From IMG/VR virus record IMGVR_UViG_3300042319_003398, positions 1 through 25,848 of that record: a stretch of DNA of 25,848 bases. The stretch is one strand, 5' to 3'. Origin of the DNA: a virus. This document shows, one piece after another, positions 1,872-21,902 of the stretch. Under the pieces are notes generated by a model, which was not told the origin of the DNA, made no database searches, and saw nothing but the letters and a program-made list of their open reading frames with translations. A program made the translations under genes and the position numbers. The number at the start of each line of letters is the position of its first letter. The first letter of the stretch is position 1.

Positions 1872-2074
1872 CGCTCCCTCTGCGTTTTCAGTGCGTCAAG
1901 AGCATCGTCGACCGCTTGTGATCTCTTTGGCAATGCAAGCACTGCATCGATCAACGCGTGCATCTCAGGAGAAAGAAGGAGGCGGCTGAAGAGCGCTTGT
2001 TGGGATGCCCCACGCTCAAACGCTTCAACCTTCTTGCGGAGTCTTTCCACCTCCCATCGAAGTTCGCTCGTCAT
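1868..2074 (-). CDS. Small coiled-coil hypothetical protein downstream of integrase
   Basis: The ATG at 2074 overlaps the integrase stop (ATGA) and gives 68 residues. The first 20 or so residues (MTSELRWEVERLRKKVEAFE) are strongly predicted coiled coil, followed by two more helices (SPEMHALIDAVLAL and AVDDALDALK). A longer in-frame reading to 2281 exists but lies inside the integrase gene and lacks protein-like character. Position next to the integrase might suggest an excisionase role, but there is no HTH or winged-helix signature to support that. Function unknown. Confidence 0.6.
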   Translation of the reverse strand: MTSELRWEVERLRKKVEAFERGASQQALFSRLLLSPEMHALIDAVLALPKRSQAVDDALDALKTQRER

Positions 2075-3234
2075 GGCTGCTTGCCTCCGATCTCGATCAC
2101 ATCTGCCTGCCTCGGCGCGACCATCGCGCCAGACGTCATCGCCGCCGCGTCGTGCAGGCCTCCCGGCCGCAAGTGCGCGTACCTCTCCGTCATCTTGATC
2201 GACCCATGCCCGAGCCAGTCGCGCACTTCGGGCAGGCTCCACACGCGGCCCCAGGTGCCTTGCACTAGGTGCGAGCCGCACGTATGCCGCAGGTCATGCC
2301 AGCGCACCGCGGGACGAATGCCAGCAAGCTCTTTGATGCGGTCCCAACCGGGCGTGTACGCGCCGCGGTGGCAGTGCCCATCGATCGCCGGGAACACGAG
2401 CGCGTCGCCGACGCCGGGACACACGCGCTGCCACTCGGCGAGCGCCTCACGAGCGGGTGCCAGCAGCGGCACTTCGCGGGGCTTGCCGCTCTTCGTCGCG
2501 AGCTCGCGCGAGTACCTCACGACCACGCGGGGCTGTGGCCCGTCGAGGCGCACGTCACGCCATCGCAGCCCCCAAAGCTCGCCCGCACGCATCCCGGTGT
2601 AGATGGCGACGATACTTGCCGAGCGTTGCTTTGTTGTGATGTGACCAGCCTTCCGGTAGCCGTTCGCGACATTGGGTGAGGTGTCGTGCACGGGCAGAGC
2701 GAAGAGGCGCTGCAGTTCGTCGACCGTCATCCAGTGCCAGCGCTCCTTCGTGTGCTCGTCGCGGGCCGTGATGGGTGCGCCTCGGGCGGGGTTCTCGTCG
2801 ACGAGTCCATCGTTGAGCGCGGCCTCAATCGCGCCCACGACCAGCCTGCGGGCGGTGCGCATCGTCGAGTGCGCGAGACGTGGCTCTTTCGCGGCGAGGT
2901 CGCGCAGCCAGCGCACGACATGGTGACGCTTGATGCGGGTGAGCGTCATCGCGGCGAGCTCGGTGCTTGCGACGTGGGCGCGCCATGCGCTTCGCTCCTT
3001 GTCGATGCCTCGCACGCGTTTGCTTCGTTCGCGCTCATCGAGCCACGACTCGCCCCACGCGCGAAGCGTAGTGCCGGATTCTTTCGCACCGCGTGCTTCG
3101 AGAGCGGCCGCTTCGACGTCCTCGGCTTCCTCGCGCGTCGTGAACACGCCGTAGGACACGCGCACGCCTTCGACGAACACGCGGACGCGGTAGCCGATCG
3201 CGCCGTTGCGCTGTCGGTAGAGAGAGAGGCTCAC
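2071..3234 (-). CDS. int: Tyrosine integrase (site-specific recombinase)
   Basis: The 387-residue protein starts with GTG at 3234 in a GTGA overlap with the upstream gene. The N-terminus (about 1-50) resembles an arm-type DNA-binding domain, with an aromatic/basic strand and a TTREEAEDVEA helix. A SAM-like core-binding domain follows (about 55-150). The catalytic domain has the first Arg in TGMRAGEL (R216), a Lys candidate in the ATKSGKPRE hairpin (K248 or K251), HDLRHT (H313, R316), LGHGS (H343) and the nucleophile Tyr352 in TERYAHL. All catalytic residues are therefore present. It would integrate the phage at the tRNA-Arg(UCU) gene whose 3' half lies about 0.6 kb downstream. Unusually, it is buried inside a long translationally coupled operon rather than having its own visible promoter. 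Confidence 0.95.
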   Translation of the reverse strand: MSLSLYRQRNGAIGYRVRVFVEGVRVSYGVFTTREEAEDVEAAALEARGAKESGTTLRAWGESWLDERERSKRVRGIDKERSAWRAHVASTELAAMTLTRIKRHHVVRWLRDLAAKEPRLAHSTMRTARRLVVGAIEAALNDGLVDENPARGAPITARDEHTKERWHWMTVDELQRLFALPVHDTSPNVANGYRKAGHITTKQRSASIVAIYTGMRAGELWGLRWRDVRLDGPQPRVVVRYSRELATKSGKPREVPLLAPAREALAEWQRVCPGVGDALVFPAIDGHCHRGAYTPGWDRIKELAGIRPAVRWHDLRHTCGSHLVQGTWGRVWSLPEVRDWLGHGSIKMTERYAHLRPGGLHDAAAMTSGAMVAPRQADVIEIGGKQP

Positions 3235-3455
3235 GTGCGCTCCGTCGTGCGGTCGATGACGAGCCGCAGTGCATCGACGCGAGACAGCGTCATCGCCAAG
3301 TCCGCGGCCGACTGCATGAGCGTTTGGCACGGACCCACGCCGATCACGTTGCGTTCGGCGAGGAGCGCTTCCGCTTCGACGATGTGCGCTCGGAGCATTT
3401 GCAGGTGCACGGCCGCGCGCTTCTCTTCGCCGCTGAGTATTTGCTGGAGGGTCAT
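3231..3455 (-). CDS. Small helical hypothetical protein
   Basis: The 74-residue product begins MTLQQILSGEEKRAAVHLQ and is predicted to be almost entirely alpha-helical. Its second half contains CQTLMQSAADLAMTLSRVDALRLVID. It overlaps the gene before it (ATGA at 3455) and the integrase after it (GTGA at 3234). No family is recognised. The conserved coupling on both sides supports it as a real gene. Confidence 0.6.
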   Translation of the reverse strand: MTLQQILSGEEKRAAVHLQMLRAHIVEAEALLAERNVIGVGPCQTLMQSAADLAMTLSRVDALRLVIDRTTERT

Positions 3456-3652
3456 CGCGGTTTCCTTCGGTTCCTTCGCGCGACGTGCTCAGCGGCCTTC
3501 GCCGATGCGACGCGGACCTTGCGCTCGATGCGCTTGGGTGGAGGAGGCGGAAGAGGTGACACGAGAGCGAGCGCTTCACGGGCGCCGGCCTTTGCCGCGC
3601 GGGCGATGATCGCTTCGAGTTGCTCGGGCGTGTACTGGAGCGCGGCGCTCAT
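3452..3652 (-). CDS. Small basic hypothetical protein
   Basis: This 66-residue protein has an N-terminal helix (YTPEQLEAIIARAAKAGAREAL), a polyproline hinge (SPLPPPPPKR) and a very basic tail (RNRRKPR). It is coupled by ATGA overlaps on both sides. The basic C-terminus suggests nucleic-acid contact, but that is inference only. Confidence 0.6.
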   Translation of the reverse strand: MSAALQYTPEQLEAIIARAAKAGAREALALVSPLPPPPPKRIERKVRVASAKAAEHVARRNRRKPR

Positions 3653-4321: not shown

Positions 4322-4647
4322 GGGCGCACCTCGTGCTCTTCGATGGTCGCACCGTCGCAGAATGACGCAGCGTGCTCTGCCGCATCGCGCGTCGCGAAGA
4401 CGTCGAAGCCGGCACCAGACGGCGATGGGAAGTGCGCGACCCACACCTTTGCCGGGGCCGCATCGAGCGCCTTCCGCATCGCACGAATCGCACGGATAGC
4501 GGTGGCGCGCGAGTCGCGCACCGCACGCCATTGCATCCGGTAGTACACCGCCCATCGGCGGTTCTCGCGATGCGCTTGGATGAGCGCTCGCCACTGCTCG
4601 AGCAACACCGCTTCTGCGGCGTCGAGCTGCTTCCGGCTTGGGTTCAC
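4318..4647 (-). CDS. Arginine-rich helical protein, duplicate copy B with C-terminal extension
   Basis: The GTG at 4647 overlaps the stop of the cytosine methyltransferase (GTGA) and gives 109 residues. It also aligns exactly with the start of copy A at 4103, which supports this choice. Residues 1-62 repeat the copy A sequence, with shared blocks LDAAE, QAHRENRR and RATAIRAIR. The remaining 45 residues form a separate small alpha/beta segment (AKVWVAHFPSPSGAGFDVFA, then a helix and an acidic tail) absent from copy A. Either copy A lost the tail or copy B gained it. Function unknown. Confidence 0.65.
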   Translation of the reverse strand: MNPSRKQLDAAEAVLLEQWRALIQAHRENRRWAVYYRMQWRAVRDSRATAIRAIRAMRKALDAAPAKVWVAHFPSPSGAGFDVFATRDAAEHAASFCDGATIEEHEVRP

Positions 4648-6191
4648 GACGCCATCCTCGCTTCCTGCGCGCAGACATTCGCCCGCACGATTGCCGCCGC
4701 CATCGGCGGGCACACGCTGTTGCCCGCGAGTTCGATCTGAATCGTCTTCGAGAGCGCCTTGCCGTTGTGGTCGATGTCGATGCGATAGCTGTCGGGGAAG
4801 GACTGCGCGCGGAACAGCTCCCGCGGCGCCAACATCCGCATGCCGATGTCGCTGGGCAGAAGCCCGCGCTCGCGCACCTCTTCGATGTGCTTCATCGAAG
4901 GCGTCGATCGGCAGTATCGAAGCAAGAACTCGATGACTTCATCAGTGCGGTCCGTGCCGTACTCGGCCACCGTCAGCGAGTGATGGTCTTGTGTCGTGAC
5001 CGTTCCGAGCGGTCGCTCAAGGTCGTGCCCAACGACGCCCCCGTAGTGCTTGGTGACGAAGGCGACGAGGGCATGCTTGACGCCGTTGACCATCGTGCCG
5101 ATCGGCTTGTCGAGCCCAGGCACACGAGGGGCTTGGCCAGGGCGCTCGCCGTAACCGGTTTGGATGAGCGTGGGGATGACGAGCGAGTGATGCCCGCCGC
5201 CGCCTGCTGTGACGGTCGCCAATGGCTCATCGATGCTGCGCCCAACGCTCTGCCCGTAGTGGCTCGCGATGAATGGCGTGACGAGCGCGAGCTCGCCGCG
5301 GTTGGCGCACGTGATCGTCTTCGTGGGCTCGTCGAGCGAGTGAACGCGCACTGCGCCGTGGTGCGTGAGCGGGACAATGAACGGCTGCGCGCACGTGAGA
5401 ACATGGCGATGCATGCCTTCGCCGATGCGTGCACACGTCGCTTCAGCAAGGGGCTTCTTGCGCGAGAAGATCGAAGGGCATCGCAGGGACCAGTCGATGA
5501 TCTCTGCGGCCGTCCGCCATGGGTGCACACGCCCTTTGCCGTGTGATGGCTCGGGCCACGTGATGCGGTGTCCATCGCATCGAGCCACAAGAAACAGGCG
5601 CTTGCGCGTGGTCGGTGCCCCGTAGTCCGCGGCGACGAGTAGACGATGCTCGATCACATAGCCGAGCGCTTCAAGCGCACGCTTCCAATCGGCGAACGTC
5701 TCGCCCGCAAGCTTCGCGATGGGCTGGCCATCGTCATCGAGCGGGCCCCACGTCACGAACTCTTCAACATTCTCGAGCACGATGACGCGCGGGCGCACTT
5801 CACTGGCCCAGCGCACCGCAACCCACGCGAGCGACCTAGTGTTTTTGTCGCGTGGCTTGCCGCCCTTTGCTTTGCTGAAGTGCGTGCAATCCGGCGACAT
5901 CCAGAGCAGCCCAACAGACTTGCCGCCACACACGCGAAGCGGGTTCACGTCGAAGACGTCTTCGCGGTAGTGCGTCGTGGTTGGGTGATTCACGGCATGC
6001 ATCGCGAGCGCGAACTCGCTGTGGTTCACGGCAATGTCCGGATGGCGGCCCGTCGCCTCGTAGATGCCGGTCGACGCGCCACCGCCGCCGGCGAACAGAT
6101 CGACGATGAGCTCGTGGCTCTGAAGCGAACCATCGCCAACCGGGTGCGACGGCTTGCGACGCACGTGGTGCGTGAGTTCGGTCTGAATCAC
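4644..6191 (-). CDS. C5-cytosine DNA methyltransferase
   Basis: The 515-residue enzyme starts with GTG at 6191 in a GTGA overlap. It transfers a methyl group from S-adenosylmethionine to carbon 5 of cytosine. Motif I is DLFAGGGGAS (31-40). The catalytic loop is SPDCTHFSKAKGG (C102), motif VI is LENVEEF (E140) and motif VIII is TTRKRLF (194-200). The C-terminal SAM/structural motif is AGNSV (489-493). The catalytic PDC, in place of the usual PCQ, is seen in a known phage-type subgroup. The target-recognition region (about 285-407) consists of four diverged repeats of the pattern D-x-P-hydrophobic-x-T-hydrophobic followed by LV-x-P/A-F-hydrophobic and YG. It probably protects phage DNA from restriction. 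No cognate restriction enzyme is visible, so it looks like an orphan methyltransferase. Confidence 0.93.
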   Translation of the reverse strand: MIQTELTHHVRRKPSHPVGDGSLQSHELIVDLFAGGGGASTGIYEATGRHPDIAVNHSEFALAMHAVNHPTTTHYREDVFDVNPLRVCGGKSVGLLWMSPDCTHFSKAKGGKPRDKNTRSLAWVAVRWASEVRPRVIVLENVEEFVTWGPLDDDGQPIAKLAGETFADWKRALEALGYVIEHRLLVAADYGAPTTRKRLFLVARCDGHRITWPEPSHGKGRVHPWRTAAEIIDWSLRCPSIFSRKKPLAEATCARIGEGMHRHVLTCAQPFIVPLTHHGAVRVHSLDEPTKTITCANRGELALVTPFIASHYGQSVGRSIDEPLATVTAGGGGHHSLVIPTLIQTGYGERPGQAPRVPGLDKPIGTMVNGVKHALVAFVTKHYGGVVGHDLERPLGTVTTQDHHSLTVAEYGTDRTDEVIEFLLRYCRSTPSMKHIEEVRERGLLPSDIGMRMLAPRELFRAQSFPDSYRIDIDHNGKALSKTIQIELAGNSVCPPMAAAIVRANVCAQEARMAS

Positions 6192-6661
6192 GACGCCTCC
6201 GGAAGTGCGAGAACGAGATGCTCGTTGCCCTGCGCATCGGTCACGAGCGTCTTGTTCGCCGCATCGATGCACGCCTTGAACTTCGCCTCATCGCCGCTGA
6301 CTGCGATGTAGATCACCGCGCACATCGTCTCGAAGAGACGCATTGGCACCACTGCGTGCGTGCCCTCGTTGTCACGCTTCGCGATGACGACGCACGGACG
6401 TGAGTCTTGGGCCATCTTGGCATCGCGTCGCGCTTGCCGAATGGCGCCCCACACGTCGGGCTTCGATCCGACTTTGCATTCGATCCAAAACGGCGTCTTC
6501 TCGACGTCGCAGCCCTCGCGCGCGGCCTTGCGTGACTGCGAGATGTTTCGCTCGGCATGCGGGAAGAACGCGCGCATGCGGTCGGAGACCTCACGTTCGA
6601 AGACGGCGCCCTTTGTGCGCGATCGGCGCCCGTTCTGGGACTTGGTCCTTGGCTGAATCAT
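6188..6661 (-). CDS. PD-(D/E)XK nuclease, possible phage Holliday-junction resolvase
   Basis: This 157-residue protein has a basic N-terminus (QPRTKSQNGRRSRTKG), then FEREVSDRMRAFFP (21-34, with E24), EGCDVE (D52), the catalytic FWIECKVG (E61, K63) and a following helix with Gln76 (IRQARRDA). This E...D...ExK...Q pattern defines the PD-(D/E)XK fold, and the 'PFWIECKVG...QA' arrangement matches small phage nucleases annotated as putative Holliday-junction resolvases. The C-terminal 50 residues form an extra alpha/beta segment. It sits between a sigma-like protein and the methyltransferase, coupled by ATGA and GTGA. Fold assignment is strong; substrate is inferred. Confidence 0.78.
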   Translation of the reverse strand: MIQPRTKSQNGRRSRTKGAVFEREVSDRMRAFFPHAERNISQSRKAAREGCDVEKTPFWIECKVGSKPDVWGAIRQARRDAKMAQDSRPCVVIAKRDNEGTHAVVPMRLFETMCAVIYIAVSGDEAKFKACIDAANKTLVTDAQGNEHLVLALPEAS

Positions 6662-7331: not shown

Positions 7332-7807
7332 GACGCACGCGTCCTCTCTGCAGGCATCGCGCTCCGCGCCTGCGAAATCGTCTTCCAGACAAGCCCCTGT
7401 GAGACGCCAAGACTCTTGGCGATGTCTCGCTGGCTCTCGCCTGCGTCGGCTCTGCGCACGACGTCAGGGACAAGGTGAGGAGGAATCTTCGGGCCGCGCA
7501 CGACCTTCGCCCCGGCGTCCTTCCAGATTCGCCCCGCGCGAATCGCTTTGATCGTGTTCATCGAGACGTTCGGGAATCGCTGAAGAAGCTTCTTCAACGG
7601 CTCATTCGAGCGACGAATGACAACTGCGTCCTCGTGCTTGAGCTTTGCCGATGGGTTGAACTCGCCAGCGACGCTTCCGAACTTCGGGCCGCGCTTCTCT
7701 GGTGTCCACTGGCGTTGCTCGCGAAGCCAAAAGCCGTTGGCGATTTCGTCCCAAGGGATCGCCGCATACCCAAGCGAATCGACGTCTGAGAGTTCGACGA
7801 ACATCAC
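7328..7807 (-). CDS. Putative DNA-binding protein with two HTH segments
   Basis: The gene begins at a GTGATG: either GTG at 7807 (GTGA overlap, given here) or ATG at 7804 (one-base overlap). The product is about 159 residues. A first HTH-like segment lies around KKLLQRFPNVSMNTIKAIRAGRIWKD; its 'I+xGxxW' ending resembles DNA-binding modules of HNH-associated proteins. A clear C-terminal HTH, RRADAGESQRDIAKSLGVSQGLVWKTIS, resembles Hin/resolvase-type HTHs. The N-terminal part (GYAAIPWDEIANGFWLREQ) is unrecognised. No nuclease residues are visible, so it is best seen as a regulator or DNA-binding accessory protein. Confidence 0.6.
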   Translation of the reverse strand: MMFVELSDVDSLGYAAIPWDEIANGFWLREQRQWTPEKRGPKFGSVAGEFNPSAKLKHEDAVVIRRSNEPLKKLLQRFPNVSMNTIKAIRAGRIWKDAGAKVVRGPKIPPHLVPDVVRRADAGESQRDIAKSLGVSQGLVWKTISQARSAMPAERTRAS

Positions 7808-9267
7808 GACGCACGCATCCTCTCTACGAGCGCAGTGTTGCGCGCCGTGTCGCTGGTCTCCTTCACTGCACGCTTGAGCCCTGCCTCGTCGCCCACGATG
7901 ACGACACCGATCTTTGCTCGAGTGATCGCCGTGTAGAGCAGGTTGCGCGTGAGCATCTTCGTGTGCGTCGAGTGCACGAACACAACGACCCACGGCCACT
8001 CGCTGCCCTGGCTCTTGTGGATGGTCAGCGCGTAAGCGAGCGCAAGCGCATCGCATTTGTTCTTCGGGTACTCAACACGGCGTTCGCCGGCGCCATCGGG
8101 GAAGCGCACTGTCACGCCAGGCGCGAACTTCTTTGCGCCCTTGCATGCGCTGCACGTGACCATCGCGTCTTCGTCGGAGAGCTGCATGCGCCCCTCGCCA
8201 TCGCACGCGGTGCACGTCGTCCACATGTTGTGCGCGCGCTCGATGACGCCGACCTCCCCGTTCATCACGAGGAGCGTGTAGTCGTTCTTCGTCTGGATGA
8301 CGCGGTCACCAACGCGCAGGCGATAGGGTCCCGACTTGATCGCCTCTTCGTTGTCGCCGCGCTCTGGATTCAAGAGCGCTTGAAGGCGCGTGTTGAGCAC
8401 CTCGCCGCCTGCAGGTCCGATTCGTTGCGGCACGAGCGTCTGAATGTCTTCGCGCGAGGTCTTCTTCTTGTCTGGAAGGAACTTCGTCACAACGTCGACA
8501 AGCGCGCTTGCTGCGCTGTCGCGGTCGCTGATCTTCACCCACAAGAAGTCAGGGCGCGCGTTGGTGTCGGGAAGTTCGCCCGCAAGGATTTGCGGGGCCT
8601 GCGTGCACACCCACGACTGCGCGGCCGCACGGTGCAGAACCGTCAAACGCGCCACATTCTCAGGCGGCAAGGCTTCGATGAGGTCAGCGAAAACGCGGCC
8701 AGGTCCCACGCTTGGAAGCTGGTTCATGTCGCCCACGAGGACGAGGCGCGTGGTTGCTGGATTGATGGCGGCGAAGAGCGACGCCGCGAGCTCTACGTCG
8801 AGCATGCTGGCTTCGTCGATGACGACGAGGTCCGCTTCGATGGGGATCAGCTTGTTCCTTCGGAAGCCCATCTCACCGTTGCCGGTCGGGCCGTAGTCGA
8901 GCGCACGGTGCACGGTGGTGCAGAGGCGTCCCGTGGCCTCCGTCATGCGCCGCGCAGCCTTGCCAGTCGGCGCGCAAAGCACGTAGACGCTCGTGCGTCC
9001 GGTGCCTCCGCACTGGTAGCAAACCTCTTCGTACGCATCGCCAAAGCCATCGTCGACAAGCGACCTGCCCGTGCCGCGACAGTTCATGCACTGGCGACCT
9101 CCGGACGCATCGATGCGATCGAGCGCCGTGCGAAGGCACGTCGTCTTGCCGGTGCCAGGGCCACCAGTGACAACGCCGATGCGAGCGCGGGCGACGAGCT
9201 CAACGGCGCGTTCCTGCGAAGGGTCGAGCGCGAAAACGGGGAGTTCCTGGGTTGTCGTTTCGGTCAT
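7804..9267 (-). CDS. RecD2-like SF1B helicase with two inserted DnaJ-type zinc motifs
   Basis: The ATG at 9267 (ATGA overlap) gives 487 residues. Motif I is GGPGTGKTT (35-43), motif Ia lies in APTGKAARRM, motif II is VVIDEASML (148-156), and motif III lies in LVGDMNQLPSVGPG. The KSQGSEW element (418-424) and YTAITRAK correspond to motifs V and VI. All are intact, so an active 5'-3' DNA helicase is expected. Two cysteine modules interrupt the usual fold. One (CMNCRGTGR...CYQCGGTGR, 60-91) lies between motifs I and Ia. The other (CTACDGEGR...CSACKGAKK, 352-380) lies in domain 2. Both have the CxxCxGxG spacing of DnaJ zinc fingers. The protein lacks RecD2's N-terminal domain, which is encoded by the separate gene at 9926-10828. 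Confidence 0.9.
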   Translation of the reverse strand: MTETTTQELPVFALDPSQERAVELVARARIGVVTGGPGTGKTTCLRTALDRIDASGGRQCMNCRGTGRSLVDDGFGDAYEEVCYQCGGTGRTSVYVLCAPTGKAARRMTEATGRLCTTVHRALDYGPTGNGEMGFRRNKLIPIEADLVVIDEASMLDVELAASLFAAINPATTRLVLVGDMNQLPSVGPGRVFADLIEALPPENVARLTVLHRAAAQSWVCTQAPQILAGELPDTNARPDFLWVKISDRDSAASALVDVVTKFLPDKKKTSREDIQTLVPQRIGPAGGEVLNTRLQALLNPERGDNEEAIKSGPYRLRVGDRVIQTKNDYTLLVMNGEVGVIERAHNMWTTCTACDGEGRMQLSDEDAMVTCSACKGAKKFAPGVTVRFPDGAGERRVEYPKNKCDALALAYALTIHKSQGSEWPWVVVFVHSTHTKMLTRNLLYTAITRAKIGVVIVGDEAGLKRAVKETSDTARNTALVERMRAS

Positions 9268-9929
9268 GGCGATTGCTCCGGCGCTTGGTTGCCCCACACA
9301 CGCCACCCTGGGCGTGCGATGCGGGCGAAGAACTCGATGCGGCTCCCGACGCTCACGCGCTCGATGAGGTCATACGAAGCACGCGGCTTGCGGGAGTGGA
9401 TGACCTTGCCGTCCGTGCCCCGCTCATGCGGTGCGAAGAGCACACTCGGCACATCGCGCGCGCCGCTCCACACGCTCGGGTCTTGGCCTTTGCCGCGCAC
9501 GCCGAAGAGCAACATCTCGTGCGCTCCGCGTGCGTACTGACCAATGCCGATTTTGACGGCGGGCGTGCCGTCTTCGCGAAGCGTGAGTTCGCCCTCGAAG
9601 CCGCACCCGGTCTCGAAGTCGAGCGCGCTCGGCTTGTCAGCGCGGACCTTCACCCATTGGTAGGTGCGCTTGTACTCAAAGCCCAAGCTCCGAATCAGGT
9701 CTAGCCCGTCCTGCAGGAACGTATCGGTCACCCACATCCAGCAATGGGCGTTCTCGGCCGGGTTCCAATCGCCCGACGTTCGGATGATTTCGAGGATGTC
9801 CTTGGTGCTCGCAAGGTTGTAGTGCCGATCGGCACCACGCTTGATCTTGCCGCCGCCACGTTCAGCCCAAGGCGGGTCGAGCAAGGCGCACTGCCATGCA
9901 GGCGACGTTGCAAAGAGGTCGCCCGTCAC
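9264..9929 (-). CDS. MT-A70 family adenine DNA methyltransferase
   Basis: The GTG at 9929 gives GTGA overlap with the previous gene, and the longer in-frame ATG at 9959 is less likely. The product is 221 residues, with the catalytic DPPW at 18-21 (CALLDPPWAERG) that defines the MT-A70 N6-adenine methyltransferases. An HCWMWVTDTFLQDGLDLIRSLGF segment follows. The C-terminal half holds the family's SAM-binding region (HSRKPRASYDLIERVS, then IEFFARIARPGWRVWGNQ). Phage members methylate adenine in DNA, usually to evade restriction. A stretch rich in Gly/Glu (DFETGCGFEGELTLREDG) sits in the middle. The gene lies between the two genes that together make up a RecD2-like helicase. Confidence 0.9.
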   Translation of the reverse strand: MTGDLFATSPAWQCALLDPPWAERGGGKIKRGADRHYNLASTKDILEIIRTSGDWNPAENAHCWMWVTDTFLQDGLDLIRSLGFEYKRTYQWVKVRADKPSALDFETGCGFEGELTLREDGTPAVKIGIGQYARGAHEMLLFGVRGKGQDPSVWSGARDVPSVLFAPHERGTDGKVIHSRKPRASYDLIERVSVGSRIEFFARIARPGWRVWGNQAPEQSP

Positions 9930-10828
9930 GCCGCGCTCCGCAGCATCATCGATGCGCACTCGGCCACCGACACCTCGGCCTGAAACAACTCGATGCGGAA
10001 GAGCTTCGTGCCATCGCGGGCAATGCGCTTCTCCTGCTCAAGCGCATCGACTTGGTCCGCAACGACGCTTCCGCTCAGACCAAGCACATCGGCGCTCATG
10101 CGCACGAGCGCACCCTGCGGCACGTACACGTGGCCCTGCCCCTCGGCCTCGCCGAGCATGTGCATGAGGCACGCGCGGATGCGGCCGGGGTGCGTGGTGG
10201 GAGTGCCCATCTTGCGGGCCACTTCATCCGCGCGAACGAAGCCAAAGCCGTGCACCTCACGGCACAGGGCGAAGGGGTCTTGCTGAAGGTTCAAGACCAC
10301 GTCCTTGCCCCACTTCTCGCGGGCCTTTGTGATCTGCGTCTCCGTCAATCCCCAACCGCGAAGCGTGACCATCTCCGCGCGGTCGCTCTTCACGCGCCGG
10401 TACTCTTCGCCGATGGCGCGCGATCCTTCGAGCGTGATGCCAGGCACCTCAACCAGCGTCTCGCAGTTGGTGTCGAGCAAGTCCCAGAGCGCCGGGATTC
10501 CGTAGCGCGTGACGAGCTCGGTGGCGCGCTTGCGGCCAAGGCCTGGGAGCTTGCTCGACAGCCACGCGATCGCGCCGCTCGCATCGCTGGGAACGATGGT
10601 CACAATCGAGCTCGCCTTGAACTGCTTGCCGTAGCTCGGGTGCGTGTCCCAACGACCCTTGCACTCGACGGTGGTGCCCGTGTCGATGCCAAGCACGGTG
10701 CCCATGACGGTAGTCGTCGCGGCGTCACCGGAGCCCGCGCGAATCATCGCGCGTCCCCAACCGTCCTTGAGCAGCTTCACGCTCGCAACCTCGCCGCGAA
10801 TCGTCTCTTCTTGAACCTGCGGTCTCAT
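9926..10828 (-). CDS. RecD2 N-terminal-domain protein (separate subunit)
   Basis: This 300-residue protein matches the first part of RecD2/YrrC-type helicases and contains no ATPase. Residues 1-75 are OB-like (GEVASVKLLKDGWGRAMI, then VECKGRWDTHPSYGKQFKA). They are followed by helix-hairpin-helix repeats: LPGLGRKRATELVTRYG, and LVEVPGITLEGSRAIG. Next come GWGLTETQITKAREKWG and the conserved DPFALCREVHGFGFVRADEVARKMG and RIRACLMHML blocks. In usual RecD2 these precede Walker A in the same chain. Here the helicase part is encoded two genes downstream (7804-9267). The start ATG at 10828 has GAGG about eight bases upstream and is the first gene of the 17-gene chain. The two proteins probably assemble as a complex; that is inference. 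Confidence 0.8.
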   Translation of the reverse strand: MRPQVQEETIRGEVASVKLLKDGWGRAMIRAGSGDAATTTVMGTVLGIDTGTTVECKGRWDTHPSYGKQFKASSIVTIVPSDASGAIAWLSSKLPGLGRKRATELVTRYGIPALWDLLDTNCETLVEVPGITLEGSRAIGEEYRRVKSDRAEMVTLRGWGLTETQITKAREKWGKDVVLNLQQDPFALCREVHGFGFVRADEVARKMGTPTTHPGRIRACLMHMLGEAEGQGHVYVPQGALVRMSADVLGLSGSVVADQVDALEQEKRIARDGTKLFRIELFQAEVSVAECASMMLRSAA

Positions 10829-11092: not shown

Positions 11093-12010
11093 CTACTCGA
11101 AGCGAGTGGCCGTCTCGGGCTCGGCCTTGGTGTCGATGAAGCCCTTGGCATTCGCGCCGTAGTCGAAGCCGGTGTCGTCTGCGCCGCCTTCGGAGTCGGT
11201 GGACTCGGCGACCTCACGCACACGGTCGAGATACAGCTCTTGCACGCCACGTGCGGTTTCAAGACAGAAGGCGATGTCTGCGCCGGAGAGCACTTCGCCG
11301 CGCTCGAAGACGGGGAGCGCGTAGGCGTTCGATCCGTTCTTCTCAAGCTTCAGCGAGAGCTTCGTCTTGAACGTGAAGAGCGGGTAGTGCGTGCGCGCGC
11401 CGTTGACCACGCGCTTGCCGAGGAAGTGCTTGTTCAGATAGGTCTTCCACGGGTCGAGGCCAGTCTTCTTGAGGCGCAGCATCACGAGCTCGCCGCCGCG
11501 CTCAAGGTCGCTCGCAACGACGTTGTGCACGTCGCCGCAGTTGCGCTTGTTCTTGCCATCGGGCCCGCGCTGCCAGCCGTAATCGGGGCAGCCGGCACAC
11601 TTGCGAACCTGGCCCGACTCGGTGCGCCCTTCGATGTTGTCCCACGAGGAGCATCGGCGAACGGTGCCCTTGTCCTGAACGAACTCGGCCCACTGGCGCG
11701 ACTTGCGGAGGACAAGGAGCGCGAGATCGGCGCTCTTCACGCTCTCTTCGGTGAGCGTGTTGAAGAGCATCGTCTTCGGTCGCTCTTGTCCTGTCTTCTC
11801 GTCGATGCCGCCAAGGTTCCAGACGAGAGATGCCAACCGGAAGTCATCCGCCGAGATGTCCTCAAGGCCCGTCATGTCGACGGACATGCCCTCGAGCTCA
11901 TCGCGTGAGAGCGCCGCAAGTGTGCCCGTCGCGAGCGCGTTGTTCTCGACCTTCGCCAAGGTTGCTGTCTCACTCATCGTCGCCTCTTCCTTCTTTGCTT
12001 TTGTCGCCAT
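11093..12010 (-). CDS. Phage zinc-binding protein, probable ssDNA-binding or recombination accessory
   Basis: The 305-residue protein starts at ATG 12010 with AAAGGA about 10 bases upstream. The central part has a cysteine cluster: RRCSSWDN, VRKCAGCPDYGW and NKRNCGDV (about 119, 138, 141 and 157). This gives a C...CxxCP-x(2)-W...C zinc site like that of phage-encoded proteins found beside recombination nucleases. The flanks contain beta-rich segments (ARTHYPLFTFKTKLSLKLEKNG) consistent with an OB-like fold. The C-terminus is acidic (ESTDSEGGADDTGFDYG), as in many single-stranded DNA-binding proteins. It is the last gene of its operon, next to the Cas4-like nuclease. An SSB role is inference; the family is not firmly recognised. 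Confidence 0.5.
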   Translation of the reverse strand: MATKAKKEEATMSETATLAKVENNALATGTLAALSRDELEGMSVDMTGLEDISADDFRLASLVWNLGGIDEKTGQERPKTMLFNTLTEESVKSADLALLVLRKSRQWAEFVQDKGTVRRCSSWDNIEGRTESGQVRKCAGCPDYGWQRGPDGKNKRNCGDVHNVVASDLERGGELVMLRLKKTGLDPWKTYLNKHFLGKRVVNGARTHYPLFTFKTKLSLKLEKNGSNAYALPVFERGEVLSGADIAFCLETARGVQELYLDRVREVAESTDSEGGADDTGFDYGANAKGFIDTKAEPETATRFE

Positions 12011-12033
12011 ATGGATTCAGTCCTTTCGTTCGT

Positions 12034-13224
12034 TCACGCGACTTCGGGGAGCAGACCGGCGAGGTCCAATCCTTCGAGCGCATCGTTGATTTCGCGGGCG
12101 TTTGCCGCGCTCATGTCGTGGCCTTCGTTGAGGCACTCCAGGCGGTACGAGCACCGCGAGCACTGCTCGCCGAGGCGCTCAAGGAAGCGCCCCATGCGGG
12201 CCGTTCCGATGATGTTCTTCATGCTCACCAAGAGCCGTGCGCGGTCGTCTGCTGCGCGCTTGCTGCGGTGCCAGATGTCGGCGTCGAGACGTGCGTTCTC
12301 GATGCTTCCTGACGCTTCCCAATACGTATCTTTGCCGCGCCTGAGCTTGCGAGCGATGCCCGCTTTGTTCGCCGCAGTGAGCAGTGCCGCGACGGATGCC
12401 GCGTTGAGCTCCCAGCCTGCTCGAGCAAGTACAACTTCAAGCTCGGCGCGTGTGAGCGTGGCATTGCTGAGTGCGCGGTGAGCGGCGCGCATGCGCTCGA
12501 TCGCAACGTACTCTCGAAGCTGCACCACAAAGACATCAGAGGCCTTCGCCGCGAGCCGCATCTCTTGCTCGGTGCCCGGGAAGAGAACGCCGTGCTCGAT
12601 GGCCTCGGCATAGATGGAGACCTGGTAGCCATGATCGAGCACCGCAGGCGCCGCCTTGCGCTCGCCCGTCTTCCAGTCGGCCACTGACACCGTGCCTGGT
12701 TGCTCACGTGGCTCGAAGAGAAGGTCGATGGTGCCGGTGGCGTGGTAGTCGCCGATCTGCACCAAGAAAGGCGCCTCGACGGCGACGATGCTGAGTGCAC
12801 GGACAGAGACGGTGCGAAGTGCGCCGATCACCATCCATCGCGCTTTGATGAGCTCGTTCTGCTCGTTGTCTTTGCCCCAATCGATCTTGAGGCCTTCCGC
12901 CGCACGCAGCATCTCTTCGCCCATCACGCGATTCAGCGTATCGGGTTGCGGCACGCGGCCCGCAAGGACGGCCGCACGCATCTGCTCGTTCTTCAGCGCG
13001 CGCTCAATCGTCGCGTGCACAGCCGTCCCCAGCGTGCGCTTCCACGGCGCCATCTGGCTCTGGCTTTCGCGTGTCTCGCCGCGCGCCTCAGCGTCGCGCT
13101 CGTACTTGTATCGCTTGGCGCAACCATCTTGCGACGAGAAGGCGTTGAGGCCCGACTGGCGCACAGGGTCTTTTGCAGTGCCCCACGCGCGGTGGTCCCA
13201 GGTGGGAAGGTGGAGCTTGGTCAT
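12034..13224 (-). CDS. Cas4/RecB-type PD-(D/E)XK exonuclease with Fe-S cluster cysteines
   Basis: This 396-residue nuclease has H70 in LGTAVHATIERA, E150 (VAVEAPF), D167 in TGTIDLLF, the core VADWKTGE (D183, K185) and the QxxxY motif in YQVSIYAEA (Q201, Y205). Together these are motifs I-III and Q-x-x-x-Y of the RecB/AddB/Cas4 nucleases. Cys35 (DGCAKRY) and the C-terminal CSRCSYRLEC (C355, C358, C364) give the four ligands of a 4Fe-4S cluster, as in Cas4 and AddB. A long helical insert (about 215-330) separates the nuclease core from the C-terminal cysteines. It is probably the phage recombination exonuclease, working with the zinc protein encoded just downstream. It overlaps the upstream gene by ATGA. 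Confidence 0.85.
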   Translation of the reverse strand: MTKLHLPTWDHRAWGTAKDPVRQSGLNAFSSQDGCAKRYKYERDAEARGETRESQSQMAPWKRTLGTAVHATIERALKNEQMRAAVLAGRVPQPDTLNRVMGEEMLRAAEGLKIDWGKDNEQNELIKARWMVIGALRTVSVRALSIVAVEAPFLVQIGDYHATGTIDLLFEPREQPGTVSVADWKTGERKAAPAVLDHGYQVSIYAEAIEHGVLFPGTEQEMRLAAKASDVFVVQLREYVAIERMRAAHRALSNATLTRAELEVVLARAGWELNAASVAALLTAANKAGIARKLRRGKDTYWEASGSIENARLDADIWHRSKRAADDRARLLVSMKNIIGTARMGRFLERLGEQCSRCSYRLECLNEGHDMSAANAREINDALEGLDLAGLLPEVA

Positions 13225-17628: not shown

Positions 17629-18527
17629 GCAACCCCAACCTCCAGGCAGCCACGCTGCAAACCGCGAACAGCGACGCGAAGGACATCATCGATGCCGTCG
17701 AGCGCTTCGCAGAGCCGGGGATGCTCTCGGGCATTCACGGCGCTGTGGATGGCGAACTCATCGTCATGCAGAAGGGTCAGCAGCTCGTTGACTTGCTGCC
17801 CTTCATCGACGCGCGTGCATCGGCCCCGCGACGCCTCAAGGGCAAGTCGACGCACACGACGCTCGACAGCTTCATCGCGCACACGAACCGCTTCAAGGAC
17901 GATGGCTCGGCCGTCTTCGCGTCCACGCAGTCGGTCACGACCGTCTTCGACTACCACCGTGCTGGCGAGCAAGGGCAGCGCTTCAGCGAGCATCGAAGCG
18001 TCTACAACTTTCCCTACTCCGAAGAGTGGAAAGCGTGGCAGTCGGCATTCGGGCGTTCCTTGGCGCAAGCCGACTTCGCGACGCTCATCGAAGACCGCAT
18101 CGCAGATGTGAGCGAGCCCTCGTCGCTCGGCGAGAAGATGTCGGCGATCGTCGCGCGTCTGGGCTTTGTGGGTGCGGGCGCTTCGGCGCTTCTGACGCTC
18201 TCGCGCAATGCCCAGGTGAGCGCATCGACGCGCGTCAAGAACGTCGTGAACCTCTCGACCGGCGAGGCGCAGGTGTGCTTCGAGGAGTCGCACGAGGGCG
18301 CCGTGAAGATCCCCGGCGGCTTCGTCATCACGGTCCCCGTGTTCACCGGTGGCCAGCCGTACCAGCTGCCCGTGCGCATTCGGTACCGCCTGCAGAACGG
18401 CGCAATCGCTTGGTCGCTCGTGCCCTTCCTGATGAACGCGGTCCTTCAGGACGCCTTCGATGGAGTCTGCGCCCAGGTGCGTGATGAGACGGGCCTGCCC
18501 GTCTTTCAGGGCCAGCCAGAGTCATGA
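17625..18527 (+). CDS. DUF2303 (YfdQ family) protein
   Basis: The GTG at 17625 (GTGA overlap) gives 300 residues. Typical family features are the N-terminal DELIVMQKGQQLVDL-like segment (here GELIVMQKGQQLVDLLPF, about 44-61). Also present are TTLDSFIAHTNRFKDDGSAVFAS, VTTVFDYH, and a C-terminal beta-sandwich-like region with IPGGFVITVPVFTGGQPYQLPVRIRYRL. DUF2303 proteins are common in phage early regions; their function is unknown. It lies directly upstream of the primase-helicase (ATGA coupling), so a role in replication or early takeover is plausible. Confidence 0.85.
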   Translation: MSNPNLQAATLQTANSDAKDIIDAVERFAEPGMLSGIHGAVDGELIVMQKGQQLVDLLPFIDARASAPRRLKGKSTHTTLDSFIAHTNRFKDDGSAVFASTQSVTTVFDYHRAGEQGQRFSEHRSVYNFPYSEEWKAWQSAFGRSLAQADFATLIEDRIADVSEPSSLGEKMSAIVARLGFVGAGASALLTLSRNAQVSASTRVKNVVNLSTGEAQVCFEESHEGAVKIPGGFVITVPVFTGGQPYQLPVRIRYRLQNGAIAWSLVPFLMNAVLQDAFDGVCAQVRDETGLPVFQGQPES

Positions 18528-21106
18528 CCGAGAAGCCCGACACGTCTGAAGGTGTTCGTCGAAAGGGTGCCACTTTGCACGTCCTGCCAGCGCGCAAACG
18601 CGCATTGAGTGACGCCCATCGCGAACACCTTCGCGCGTCGGGTTTGACCGATGAATCGATCGACCTCGGTGGCTTCTACACGGAGCGCGATCCCGCTTCG
18701 ATCGCCGCCATCTTGCATTGGACTTCATGGCCACGTGGACGGGGTGACGTGCTCGTCATCCCGTTCTCCTTGCCCGGCCAGCCTGAACCTTTCTTTTCCC
18801 GTGTGCGTCCCGACTCGCCACGCACGAACAAGGACACCGAAAAGGTCATCAAGTACGAGCAGCCCAAGGCAACGCCGATGGCGCCCTACTTCGCGGCGCG
18901 TGCTCGAGCGAACGGCTGGCTTGCCGACACGAGCAAGCCGCTGGTTCTCACCGAAGGCGAGAAGAAGGCTGCGCTGCTCGACCAACTTGGATTCGCATCG
19001 ATCGGCGCAACGGGCGTCGCCTGCTTTCACGACGCGGGCTTCCGCCGTGACGAGGGCGAGTACCGCCTGCACGAGCTCATCCGCAAGCACGTGACGGTGA
19101 AGGGGCGCGAGTGCTTCATCGCGTTTGATTCGGACAGCAAAGACAACGAGAACGTGTCGCGCGCAGCCGATGTGCTTGCCGCCATGCTCCGCGCTGAAGG
19201 CGCCTCTGACGTGCGGATGCTGAGCATCCCCGCAGAGAAAGACCAAAAGCTCGGCATCGACGACTTCTTCGCTCGCTTCGGCGAGTCCAAGACGCGCGAA
19301 CTCTTTGGCACCGCAGAATCCGTGCAGGGCAATCTCGGCCGCTCTGCGCACGTGCTCTTGTCGAGCTTCCGTGCGCTCGCTGGGGCCCCACTTCCGGAGA
19401 AGCTCCGCATGCCGCAGGGCTACGACCTGGGCAAAGGCGGGGAACTCACGCGCTACGACGAGAAGAGCCACGGCCAAGTGCCAGTGGAGCGCGCCGGCCT
19501 TTTCGTTTCGCGCTTCGTCGCCGACCTCTACACGGGCAACGAGAACGTCGAGCTCGTGTTCAAGCGCGCGGATGTGTGGCGGCGCGTGGTGGTTGCACGC
19601 AAAGCCATTGCGGACTCGCGCACGCTGGTGAGCGATCTGGCGCCCCTGGGTGCGCCCGTCGACTCCAACACGGCCTCGGACATGGTCCGTTGGTTGCGTG
19701 ACTTTGAGTCAGCGAACGAGACGCGGATCCCGCGCTCAACGTCGGTGGGTCGATGCGGGTGGCACACCGTCGAGAACGCCGACGTCTTCGCGCTTGGGTC
19801 TGAAGTGCACGCTGCCGCAGGCGAGTGCGATGTGCTCGTTGAGCGTGGCGGCGACCGTGGGCGCCTGTTTCGTGGTCTCAAGACCAAGGGCAACATCGAA
19901 GCTGCGCTCTCTGCCCTGCGTGACGCGTGGACGGCGTCGCCCATCGCTGCCGCAGCAATCTGCGCATCGCTCGCCGCGCCCCTGCTCAAGCCGCTTGGTG
20001 CGCCGCTCTTCGCAATGCATCTCGCGGGCGATTCGAGCCGCGGCAAGAGTTCGATGCTCAAGCTCGCGGCCAGCATCTACGGAGACCCGCGCGACGAGGA
20101 ATGGGTCGCGTCGTGGAACTCAACATCGGTGGGTCTCGAGGTGAGGGCCGCGATGCTCTCCGACCTGCCGCTGTGCATCGATGAGGCTGGCGTCGTCGAT
20201 GCCAAAGACCGCGAGAAAGCGGTCTACATGCTCGTCAATGGCGTGGGCCGCACTCGTGGAGCAAAGGACGGCGGGCTTCGTGAGGGCCACTCGTGGCGCA
20301 CAGTGGTGCTCTCGACAGGCGAGTCGAGGCTCGTGACCGAGGAGAGCGCGACAGGCGCACAAGTGCGCGTCCTCGACCTCGCGGTCGACGGATTCGGCAA
20401 GCTCACGGCCGCTGGTGTCGATGCGCTCGTGCGCTCGTGCGTCGAGAACTATGGCGTGGTTGGTGCGCAATGGCTCAAGGCGCTTGTGTCGGTCGACGCA
20501 GACGCGTGGGCAGATGAGCGCGACCGGCTGCGGACACGTACCAAGGCCTTCGCCGATCGAGCGGCGACTGGGTCGCTTGCGGCCCGTCAGTCAGCGTTTT
20601 GGGCGTTGCTCGCACACGTCGAAGCAATCGCGTTTGAGGAGCTCGGCATTGGCATTGAAGGTGGCGCATCGATGGCCCGCCTGTTCGCCGAGCAGAGCGA
20701 CCCGAAGAAGGCACTGATGCGCGAGGCAAGGACGGCCAGCGACCGAGCAATCGATGTGGTGCGCGAGTGGATGATTCGCGACGGCGCGAAGTTCCCGCGC
20801 CTCGACATCAACCCGGCTGGCAAGAAGGTGCCCAAGTTCTCTGGAGGTGGTCGCGAGGTCGCGGGGTACATCGATCAGGACAGAGGGCTTCTCGTCGTCC
20901 CCGGCGCCCTGCGCGAAGCACTCGCTCGATCAGGGATCTCCGACGCAGTGGTTCTCCGCGACTGGAGACAGCGAGGGCTCATCGACTGCGACGAAGGCGT
21001 CATGTCGAAGACGGTTCGCATCGATGGAGCGAAGGTGCGTGTCATCGCAATCGGCTGCGAAACAATGGGGATTGAGCCCGCGAGCGAGGAGTTCGGCAAT
21101 GCCTGA
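18524..21106 (+). CDS. Replicative primase-helicase (DUF3854 + DUF927)
   Basis: The 860-residue protein starts at ATG 18524 (ATGA overlap). The N-terminal 280 residues form a DUF3854/Toprim-like primase-associated module: LVLTEGEKKAALLDQLGF (E144, E146), ECFIAFDSDSKDN (D202, D204) and KLGIDDFFA. Residues about 300-640 form the DUF927 helicase, with the Walker A GDSSRGKSS (502-510), Walker B LPLCIDEAG (548-556) and a sensor-like ATGAQVRVLDL. The C-terminal 200 residues are a HTH-like DNA-binding tail. It would unwind the phage origin and prime synthesis. The repeat cluster 20 bp beyond its end, in the next gene, is a natural substrate site. Confidence 0.88.
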   Translation: MTEKPDTSEGVRRKGATLHVLPARKRALSDAHREHLRASGLTDESIDLGGFYTERDPASIAAILHWTSWPRGRGDVLVIPFSLPGQPEPFFSRVRPDSPRTNKDTEKVIKYEQPKATPMAPYFAARARANGWLADTSKPLVLTEGEKKAALLDQLGFASIGATGVACFHDAGFRRDEGEYRLHELIRKHVTVKGRECFIAFDSDSKDNENVSRAADVLAAMLRAEGASDVRMLSIPAEKDQKLGIDDFFARFGESKTRELFGTAESVQGNLGRSAHVLLSSFRALAGAPLPEKLRMPQGYDLGKGGELTRYDEKSHGQVPVERAGLFVSRFVADLYTGNENVELVFKRADVWRRVVVARKAIADSRTLVSDLAPLGAPVDSNTASDMVRWLRDFESANETRIPRSTSVGRCGWHTVENADVFALGSEVHAAAGECDVLVERGGDRGRLFRGLKTKGNIEAALSALRDAWTASPIAAAAICASLAAPLLKPLGAPLFAMHLAGDSSRGKSSMLKLAASIYGDPRDEEWVASWNSTSVGLEVRAAMLSDLPLCIDEAGVVDAKDREKAVYMLVNGVGRTRGAKDGGLREGHSWRTVVLSTGESRLVTEESATGAQVRVLDLAVDGFGKLTAAGVDALVRSCVENYGVVGAQWLKALVSVDADAWADERDRLRTRTKAFADRAATGSLAARQSAFWALLAHVEAIAFEELGIGIEGGASMARLFAEQSDPKKALMREARTASDRAIDVVREWMIRDGAKFPRLDINPAGKKVPKFSGGGREVAGYIDQDRGLLVVPGALREALARSGISDAVVLRDWRQRGLIDCDEGVMSKTVRIDGAKVRVIAIGCETMGIEPASEEFGNA

Positions 21107-21902
21107 ATACATGCGTTCAGGGGTGGAACAGGTGGAACAGGGTGGAACAGGTGGTGGAACAGGTGCACCTGTTCCACCTATTCGCATTCAAAATAAGGGG
21201 ATTTCTCGGCGCGGGTGGGGTGGAACAGGTCAGACGGGTTTTGAAACAATCCTAACGCGCGAGAACGTGGAGAGCGAAGCGCCTACCTGTGCGCGCATAT
21301 GTACACTTGATTGTACCTGTTCCACCTGTTCCACCTGTTCCACCTCAAGCAAACGCCTTGAATCGAGTGAGATTCAGGTGGAACAGGTCGATCAGGCGCT
21401 ACCTGTTCCACCTGTTCCATCCTCCGAGTTTGCGGAGGTGGAAGCGCTTGAAGTGCGCTTCCTCGGCGCGCTACCCGTGCCATTCACCCTCACGCTGACC
21501 CAGGAAGGCGCCTCAGAGCCTTTCTACGTCTCGACCGACGCTGGACACGTCCAAGAGCTTCGGCGCCTTTCCAGGCCTGTCTGGGCGCCAGTAGGTTTTG
21601 AGTACGCCGCTTGGGCCATCCAGCAAGACCGGGCGACGGCGTCAGACTTTGCTCGGTGGTGTGGACGTTTGCGCACTGGCTGGCGTCTTGGGCTTGATGA
21701 GGCGTGCGCTGGCGTACCTGGGCTGATCGACATGTGGCGGGACGCGAAGACCGCAACGGGCGTCCGCACCGAACCGAGCATCACGCTTGGAGCTTTGCTG
21801 CGGCGCGTAGGCGCTCGCGTGACGGCGCTTGAGTTCGCAGATGAGCGCCAGGGTAGGCAGTCGGTCACGAGCGCTCAGGCGCAGGTGGAGGCGGCATGGT
21901 GA
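21099..21902 (+). CDS. Hypothetical protein whose gene contains the repeat cluster
   Basis: The ATG at 21099 overlaps the primase-helicase stop by eight bases and gives 267 residues. The first 110 or so residues are low-complexity and contain the peptides VEQVEQ, GGTGGGTG, CSTCSTCSTSS, VEQVDQ and PVPPVP. All come from one 9-10-base DNA repeat read in different frames or orientations. The C-terminal half (FTLTLTQEGASEPFYVSTDAG, then WAPVGFEYAAWAIQQDRATASDFARWCGRL) looks like a folded domain, but no family is recognised. A later translation start is possible. The arrangement recalls lambda O, where origin iterons lie within the initiator gene; that role is only inferred here. Confidence 0.6.
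   Translation: MPEYMRSGVEQVEQGGTGGGTGAPVPPIRIQNKGISRRGWGGTGQTGFETILTRENVESEAPTCARICTLDCTCSTCSTCSTSSKRLESSEIQVEQVDQALPVPPVPSSEFAEVEALEVRFLGALPVPFTLTLTQEGASEPFYVSTDAGHVQELRRLSRPVWAPVGFEYAAWAIQQDRATASDFARWCGRLRTGWRLGLDEACAGVPGLIDMWRDAKTATGVRTEPSITLGALLRRVGARVTALEFADERQGRQSVTSAQAQVEAAW
21122..21421. repeat. Bidirectional GGTGGAACAG repeat cluster: candidate replication origin iterons
   Basis: Exact plus-strand copies start at 21122, 21131, 21141, 21153, 21219 and 21377. Reverse-complement copies start at 21169, 21317, 21326, 21335, 21403 and 21412 (the last with one mismatch). Several are tandem at 9-base steps. AT-rich stretches lie between them (about 21181-21207 and 21237-21255), in an otherwise high-G+C region. 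The repeats are read as VEQ, GGT, CST and PVP, so the DNA rather than the peptide appears conserved. A replication origin is the favoured reading because the primase-helicase gene is adjacent. A packaging (pac) site near the terminase genes is an alternative. Confidence 0.75.
21153..21178. repeat. Perfect 26-bp palindrome within the repeat cluster
   Basis: A plus-strand repeat copy and an inverted copy meet at the centre GGTGCACC, making a perfect palindrome with 13-base arms beginning GGTGGAACAGGTG. It can form a cruciform or a dimeric protein site and may be the nucleation point of initiator binding. Confidence 0.7.

What the first reader, a model, noticed from the sequence alone, without database searches (positions are those of the whole stretch)
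21122..21421. Twelve copies of a 10-base sequence in both orientations inside a coding gene, likely the phage origin
GGTGGAACAG and its complement are repeated over 300 bases just after the primase-helicase gene. Different peptide repeats (VEQ, GGT, CST, PVP) arise from the same DNA unit in different frames, so selection acts on DNA. AT-rich gaps suit strand opening. This matches the in-gene iterons of lambdoid O genes, but the 9-base tandem step and mixed orientation are unlike usual iterons. A pac site or a regulator-binding array are alternatives.
Basis: partly seen in the sequence, partly recalled or inferred. Interest (0 to 1): 0.82.

Follow-up and report, generated by a model that had tools for sequence, protein, structure and literature searches.

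The report
Phage replication-origin iterons after helicase gene
The repeat cluster is very probably where this phage's own helicase docks to start copying its DNA, and the same kind of landing pad, spelled with different but related short words, sits behind this class of helicase gene in many other phages and bacterial genomes.

Summary
Confirmed: 12 copies of GGTGGAACAG (11 exact, one with a mismatch), six per orientation, at 21122-21421, starting 16 bp after the stop of a DUF3854-DUF927-HTH_56 primase-helicase gene; shuffles give none like it. Best reading: the phage's replication origin, read by the winged-helix C-terminus of that primase-helicase, not by the 267-aa protein. Evidence: (1) In DUF927 genes sampled without regard to repeats, 24 of 41 have a similar array within 450 bp downstream, against 2/30 upstream and 8/663 random windows; the words differ but mostly share a GG-N-ACA core. 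(2) Arrays fall into two opposed halves. (3) Viruses with this word in mixed orientation carry DUF927 in 9/16 records even when the gene is far away; 0/24 controls. (4) The C-terminus is homologous to SaPIBov1 Rep and SCCmec Cch, whose relatives bind iterons just downstream of their own gene. (5) A diverged relative (49% identical C-terminus) keeps the array, while the array's codons show no protein-level constraint. P4 crr has nearly the same word (GGTGAACA), 9-nt step, mixed orientation and position. The kind is known; the cross-family word grammar appears undescribed in the library searched. No experiment was possible.

The parts
18524..21106 (+). Primase-helicase, proposed initiator (860 aa: DUF3854 TOPRIM-like primase, DUF927 AAA+ helicase, HTH_56/Cch C-terminus)
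   Evidence: Pfam DUF927 2.6e-46, DUF3854 2.3e-17, HTH_56 7.8e-07; PHROG primase/helicase 1.4e-81; PDB 8tch SaPIBov1 Rep and 5dgk Cch by sequence
20591..21073 (+). C-terminal winged-helix region (about residues 690-850), proposed iteron reader
   Evidence: Homologous in 61 proteins; profile hits 5dgk 1e-8 and 8tch 3.5e-4; model matches 8tch Z 13.8 and TcpK bound to oriT DNA 5vfx Z 11.2
21122..21228 (.). Left half of the iteron array: copies at 21122+, 21131+, 21141+, 21153+, 21169-, 21219+
21229..21316 (.). Central gap without iterons, 52% GC (window 64%), candidate melting region
21317..21421 (.). Right half of the iteron array: copies at 21317-, 21326-, 21335-, 21377+, 21403-, 21412- (one mismatch)
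21099..21902 (+). 267-aa ORF whose first ~107 codons span the array; conserved domain of unknown function from about residue 110; ATG overlaps the primase-helicase stop
   Evidence: no family or fold match

Best explanation
The array is the replication origin (initiator-binding region) of this temperate phage. Copies of the primase-helicase encoded just upstream bind the GGTGGAACAGGT sites through their C-terminal winged-helix domain. The two oppositely facing half-arrays position two helicase assemblies around the central gap, which opens; the helicases load and the TOPRIM-type part primes. Shown here by computation: the array, its place, its symmetry, the homology of the C-terminus to SaPIBov1 Rep and Cch, and the recurrence of arrays behind DUF927 genes. 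Inferred: that this protein binds these sites, that the gap melts, that replication is bidirectional, and that the array is sufficient as an origin.
For: Position 16 bp after the initiator gene. 24 of 41 DUF927 genes not chosen for repeats have an array (>=5 copies of a 7-mer) within 450 bp downstream; 32 of 49 if 8 loci from genomes preselected by the pattern scan are counted; 2/30 upstream, 8/663 random windows. Same position in named phages FP_Epona, THSA-485A, phiAH14b and Klebsiella P12620-1. The word switches along the C-terminal tree, e.g. GGTGGAACA in L321 and GTGGTACA in its near relative L393. Antisymmetric halves in 37 arrays: mean 0.57 against 0.29 permuted, 0 of 2000; gap AT-richer than the arms in 29/37. 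DUF927 in 9/16 virus records with distant mixed-orientation arrays, DUF5906 in 3 of the other 7, 0/24 controls. Homology to SaPIBov1 Rep and Cch. [quoted passage not shown] Gram-negative PICIs have two iteron sets flanking an AT-rich region and pri-rep-ori supports plasmid replication (PMC6092414). P4 crr: GGTGAACA, mixed orientation, 9-nt step, just past alpha.
Against: No binding or replication data. In this window the gap is no richer in AT than the arms (0.53 against 0.54 GC). 17 of the 41 sampled DUF927 genes show no such array. GC skew is confounded by gene direction. Only one informative relative (L090) of the window phage was found.
Confidence: 0.87

Rival explanations
1. Terminase recognition (pac) site: the small terminase binds the repeats to start packaging.
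For: Small and large terminase genes follow within about 1-1.6 kb; in a large marine group the arrays lie near terminase genes.
Against: The same kind of array follows DUF927 genes across sampled bacterial genomes and in the P4 satellite, beside the initiator rather than a terminase; words change along the initiator's C-terminal tree; the marine records carry DUF927 or DUF5906 elsewhere.
Confidence: 0.05
2. Operator array for a transcription regulator, or autoregulation of the primase-helicase operon.
For: Short sites in both orientations; iteron initiators can also regulate their own genes (general knowledge).
Against: The array lies after, not before, the initiator gene; two opposed halves around a gap are origin-like; the same place is known as the origin in SaPI/PICI and as crr in P4.
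Confidence: 0.05
3. Coding repeat: the peptide repeats (VEQ, GGT, CST, PVP) are what is selected.
For: The frame is open through the array here and in L090 (3.6% of shuffles are open); single-orientation TGGAACA repeats coding Gly-Gly-Thr are common in tail proteins.
Against: Both orientations used in several frames; no codon-position bias against L090; arrays recur in intergenic DNA elsewhere.
Confidence: 0.02
4. Lambdoid-O-like system in which the 267-aa protein itself binds the array in its own gene.
For: The array lies in the 5' part of that ORF; DUF6291 genes elsewhere do carry such arrays inside the gene.
Against: No family or fold support for a DNA-binding domain; a dedicated winged helix exists in the upstream protein.
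Confidence: 0.04

Closest known systems
SaPI / PICI rep-ori modules and the SCCmec Cch/Cch2 putative origins
   Same: DUF927 helicase of the SaPIBov1 Rep and Cch family, C-terminal DNA-binding domain, iterons directly downstream, two iteron sets around a gap
   Different: Primase (DUF3854) fused to the helicase; carried by a terminase- and portal-bearing temperate phage, not a satellite; word GGTGGAACAGGT; array runs into the next ORF
Phage P4 alpha protein, ori and crr (type I iterons GGTGAACA)
   Same: Near-identical word, both orientations, 9-nt step, array just past the 3' end of a primase-helicase gene
   Different: P4 alpha is Zn_Ribbon-Toprim_3-D5_N-DUF5906-Pox_D5, not DUF927-HTH_56; P4 has a second, separate ori; one base fewer in the word
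Lambdoid O-gene iterons
   Same: Iteron array overlapping a coding frame
   Different: The array lies in the gene after the initiator, short words in both orientations; the initiator is a primase-helicase rather than an O-type protein
pRN1-type origins downstream of a primase-helicase
   Same: Origin immediately downstream of a primase-helicase gene with a C-terminal winged helix (PMC4234260)
   Different: pRN1 uses a stem-loop and has no iterons

Membership tests
SaPI/PICI-type rep-ori (DUF927 initiator) | Initiator helicase with a DUF927 domain | tested here: met
   Pfam 2.6e-46; phmmer to 8tch 8.7e-15 and 5dgk 1.3e-11
SaPI/PICI-type rep-ori (DUF927 initiator) | C-terminal DNA-binding domain related to SaPIBov1 Rep / Cch | tested here: met
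   Profile 1.1e-8 and 3.5e-4; Foldseek 2e-6 to 9e-5; Z 13.8 and 10.1, with large rmsd over the whole chain
SaPI/PICI-type rep-ori (DUF927 initiator) | Iterons directly downstream of the initiator gene | tested here: met
   First copy at 21122, stop codon ends at 21106
SaPI/PICI-type rep-ori (DUF927 initiator) | Two iteron sets flanking an AT-rich region | tested here: inconclusive
   Two sets met; the gap is 52% GC, below the genome's 64% but not below the arms
SaPI/PICI-type rep-ori (DUF927 initiator) | Cloned initiator plus array replicates autonomously | not testable with these tools
   Needs an experiment
P4 alpha / ori-crr | Type I iteron GGTGAACA | tested here: not met
   The word is GGTGGAACA, one base longer
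P4 alpha / ori-crr | Alpha-type initiator: zinc ribbon, Toprim_3, D5_N, DUF5906, Pox_D5 | tested here: not met
   P4 alpha has these; the window protein has DUF3854, DUF927 and HTH_56
P4 alpha / ori-crr | Array just past the primase-helicase gene, both orientations, 9-nt step | tested here: met
P4 alpha / ori-crr | Two separated cis regions (ori and crr) | tested here: not met
   A single cluster in the window; the record may be incomplete
Lambdoid O in-gene origin | Iterons lie in the gene of the protein that binds them | tested here: inconclusive
   The array is in the next ORF, which has no recognised DNA-binding domain; binding itself untested

The most novel reading that the evidence does not exclude
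A shared, evolvable iteron grammar (mostly GG-N-ACA, arranged as two opposed half-arrays) is used across many phages, satellites and prophages by winged-helix initiators of several helicase families (DUF927, VapE-like, D5/DUF5906), with element-specific letters that switch together with the initiator's C-terminus. It would be a readable specificity code for a large class of phage origins, of which this window carries one word.
Probability: 0.5. Interest if true: 0.8.

Novelty: new member of a known kind. Interest (0 to 1): 0.62.

Why it matters
Few phage origins are mapped, and computational prediction of them is hard. If the rule holds (look just downstream of DUF927, VapE or D5-type primase-helicase genes for opposed GGNACA half-arrays), origins of very many uncultured phages could be called from sequence. 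The natural panel of word and winged-helix pairs, including close relatives with different words (L321 and L393; L384 and L394), makes initiator-origin specificity and replicon incompatibility directly testable.

Tried and rejected
1) The tandem 20-mer alone is a poor probe: most of the >=119 viral hits are single-orientation Gly-Gly-Thr coding repeats; mixed-orientation patterns were used instead. 2) BLAST of the array against named phages gave only weak, repeat-driven hits. 3) Searches with the primase-helicase and the 267-aa protein found only near-identical viral contigs; the divergent relative L090 came from the pattern scan. 4) Literature searches for the word found no origin paper. 5) The hypothesis that the window protein is a P4-alpha homologue was dropped: different helicase and C-terminal families. 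P4's own origin-binding domain structure did not appear among the fold matches, which is not evidence of absence. 6) GC skew: the cumulative minimum near 15 kb follows the switch of gene direction, so it is uninformative. 7) No useful DUF927 sample in one further phylum. 8) My first count, 32/49, included eight loci from genomes preselected by the pattern scan; the clean figure is 24/41. For VapE, one preselected locus (L447) makes the clean figure 6/17.

Full report
OBSERVATION. GGTGGAACAG occurs 11 times exactly and once with a mismatch at 21122-21421, six copies on each strand; one other single-mismatch site exists in the whole window and none of 100 shuffles comes near. Random genomes of the same dinucleotide make-up give at most 4 copies of any 10-mer in 300 bp. 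Sites read GGTGGAACAGGT; same-strand steps are 9, 10 and 12 nt. The order is ++++-+, then an 88-bp gap without iterons, then ---+--.

SURROUNDINGS. The array starts 16 bp after the stop of an 860-aa protein with DUF3854 (TOPRIM-like), DUF927 and HTH_56, a PHROG primase/helicase. It lies within ORF 21099-21902, whose ATG overlaps that stop. Small terminase, large terminase and portal genes follow; an integrase lies at 2071-3579: a temperate tailed phage.

PROTEIN OR DNA? L090 is a diverged relative (initiator C-terminus 49% identical) with the same layout. Aligned codons of the array part show changes spread evenly over codon positions (47/45/48), 12 of 73 changed codons synonymous; the rest shows 57/54/87 and 41 of 116. 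The array part is thus not held by protein selection, while the words are kept, some as TGGAACG. The frame stays open in both, so the part may be translated as an unconstrained linker.

HOW WIDESPREAD IS THIS WORD? Single-orientation matches are mostly Gly-Gly-Thr coding repeats. Mixed-orientation patterns, expected well under once by chance in such collections on my estimate from the number of specified bases, hit 76 and at least 120 viral stretches and 73 genome stretches in many phyla. Clusters of neighbouring genes show arrays within 72 bp of the 3' end of primase-helicases of several architectures: DUF927 with DUF3854 or zinc ribbon plus Toprim_3, Toprim plus DUF5906, PrimPol or RepB primase plus D5_N, and VapE-like.

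TEST FROM THE INITIATOR SIDE. DUF927 genes were collected from about 500 genomes of two phyla without reference to repeats. Leaving out eight loci from genomes preselected by the pattern scan, 24 of 41 have at least 5 copies of a 7-mer within 450 bp downstream (32 of 49 with them), against 2/30 upstream and 8/663 random windows. The words differ: GGGAACA, GGGGACA, GTGGGACA, GTGGTACA, GGTTACA, GGCAACA, GGTGGACA, GGTAACC and others, mostly of the form GG-N-ACA. None of the 41 has five or more copies of TGGAACA, so the window's word is one allele among many. Weaker but present for VapE-like (7/18, or 6/17 without a preselected locus) and D5_N (6/24) genes against 0/215 and 0/305 controls. Named phages FP_Epona, THSA-485A, phiAH14b and Klebsiella P12620-1 carry arrays at the same place.

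ARCHITECTURE. Across 37 arrays the two sides of the largest gap point in opposite directions (mean score 0.57 against 0.29, 0 of 2000 permutations) and the gap is AT-richer than the arms in 29. A few arrays entered through a mixed-orientation pattern, which slightly favours mixed signs. In the window the gap is 52% GC, below the genome's 64% but equal to the arms.

CO-OCCURRENCE. In 16 marine and other virus records whose arrays lie more than 5 kb from any recognised initiator, DUF927 was found in 9 and DUF5906 in 3 of the other 7; in 24 records with the same word in one orientation, DUF927 was found in none. The 16 records are partly related, so the test is not fully independent.

The window protein's C-terminal region is homologous across 61 proteins found here and to SCCmec Cch (5dgk) and SaPIBov1 Rep (8tch). 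The predicted model (mean pLDDT 75.6; winged helix mostly 84-93) matches 8tch (Z 13.8) and TcpK bound to oriT DNA (5vfx, Z 11.2, 2.3 A over 92 residues). On a tree of C-termini the word switches repeatedly; near relatives L321 and L393 use GGTGGAACA and GTGGTACA. The 267-aa protein has no family or fold match.

KNOWN SYSTEMS. P4 annotates type I repeats GGTGAACA in both orientations with a 9-nt step in crr, just past alpha, and more in ori; alpha is a D5-type protein, so the window works like P4 but is not of its initiator family. SaPI Rep reads iterons directly downstream of its own gene with its C-terminal domain, and the C-terminal domain of Cch2 binds its putative origin (PMC7581432). Gram-negative PICIs have two iteron sets flanking an AT-rich region and a functional pri-rep-ori (PMC6092414). 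pRN1 has its origin downstream of a primase-helicase, as a stem-loop (PMC4234260). The array here also folds strongly as single-stranded DNA because of its inverted halves (z -8.7).

VERDICT. A replication origin of the SaPI/PICI-like, initiator-adjacent iteron kind, confidence 0.87. What is new is the breadth and common grammar of the words, for which no report was found in the library searched; this is a lead and needs relatedness-controlled analysis and binding tests.

Noticed in passing
L198:2805-2935 and L175, L191, L194, L148, L270, L280: Mixed-orientation TGGAACA arrays lie inside genes of DUF6291 proteins, a lambda-O-like in-gene arrangement with the same word.
   Followed up: partly
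L131:3430-3596, L140, L172, L187, L189, L190, L196: Arrays 22-53 bp from the 5' end of an rve-type transposase gene; possibly an element inserted beside an origin or an array of its own.
   Followed up: no
L200-L307 (marine virus contigs): A large group of marine phages has 10-13-site TGGAACA arrays in intergenic DNA near terminase genes, with the DUF927 or DUF5906 initiator far away.
   Followed up: partly
window 11093-13224 and 7804-10828, minus strand: Early gene block: a PD-(D/E)XK nuclease-like protein and a RecD2-like helicase that appears split into two ORFs (9926-10828 with the N-terminal and HHH parts, 7804-9306 with the motor).
   Followed up: no
window 4644-6272, minus strand: A 542-aa ORF that by eye resembles a C5 cytosine methyltransferase (motif DLFAGGGGASTG); not searched.
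   Followed up: no
L353:6207-6638: A mixed-orientation TGGAACA array in a contig labelled Thaumarchaeota; may be a binning error or an archaeal element.
   Followed up: no
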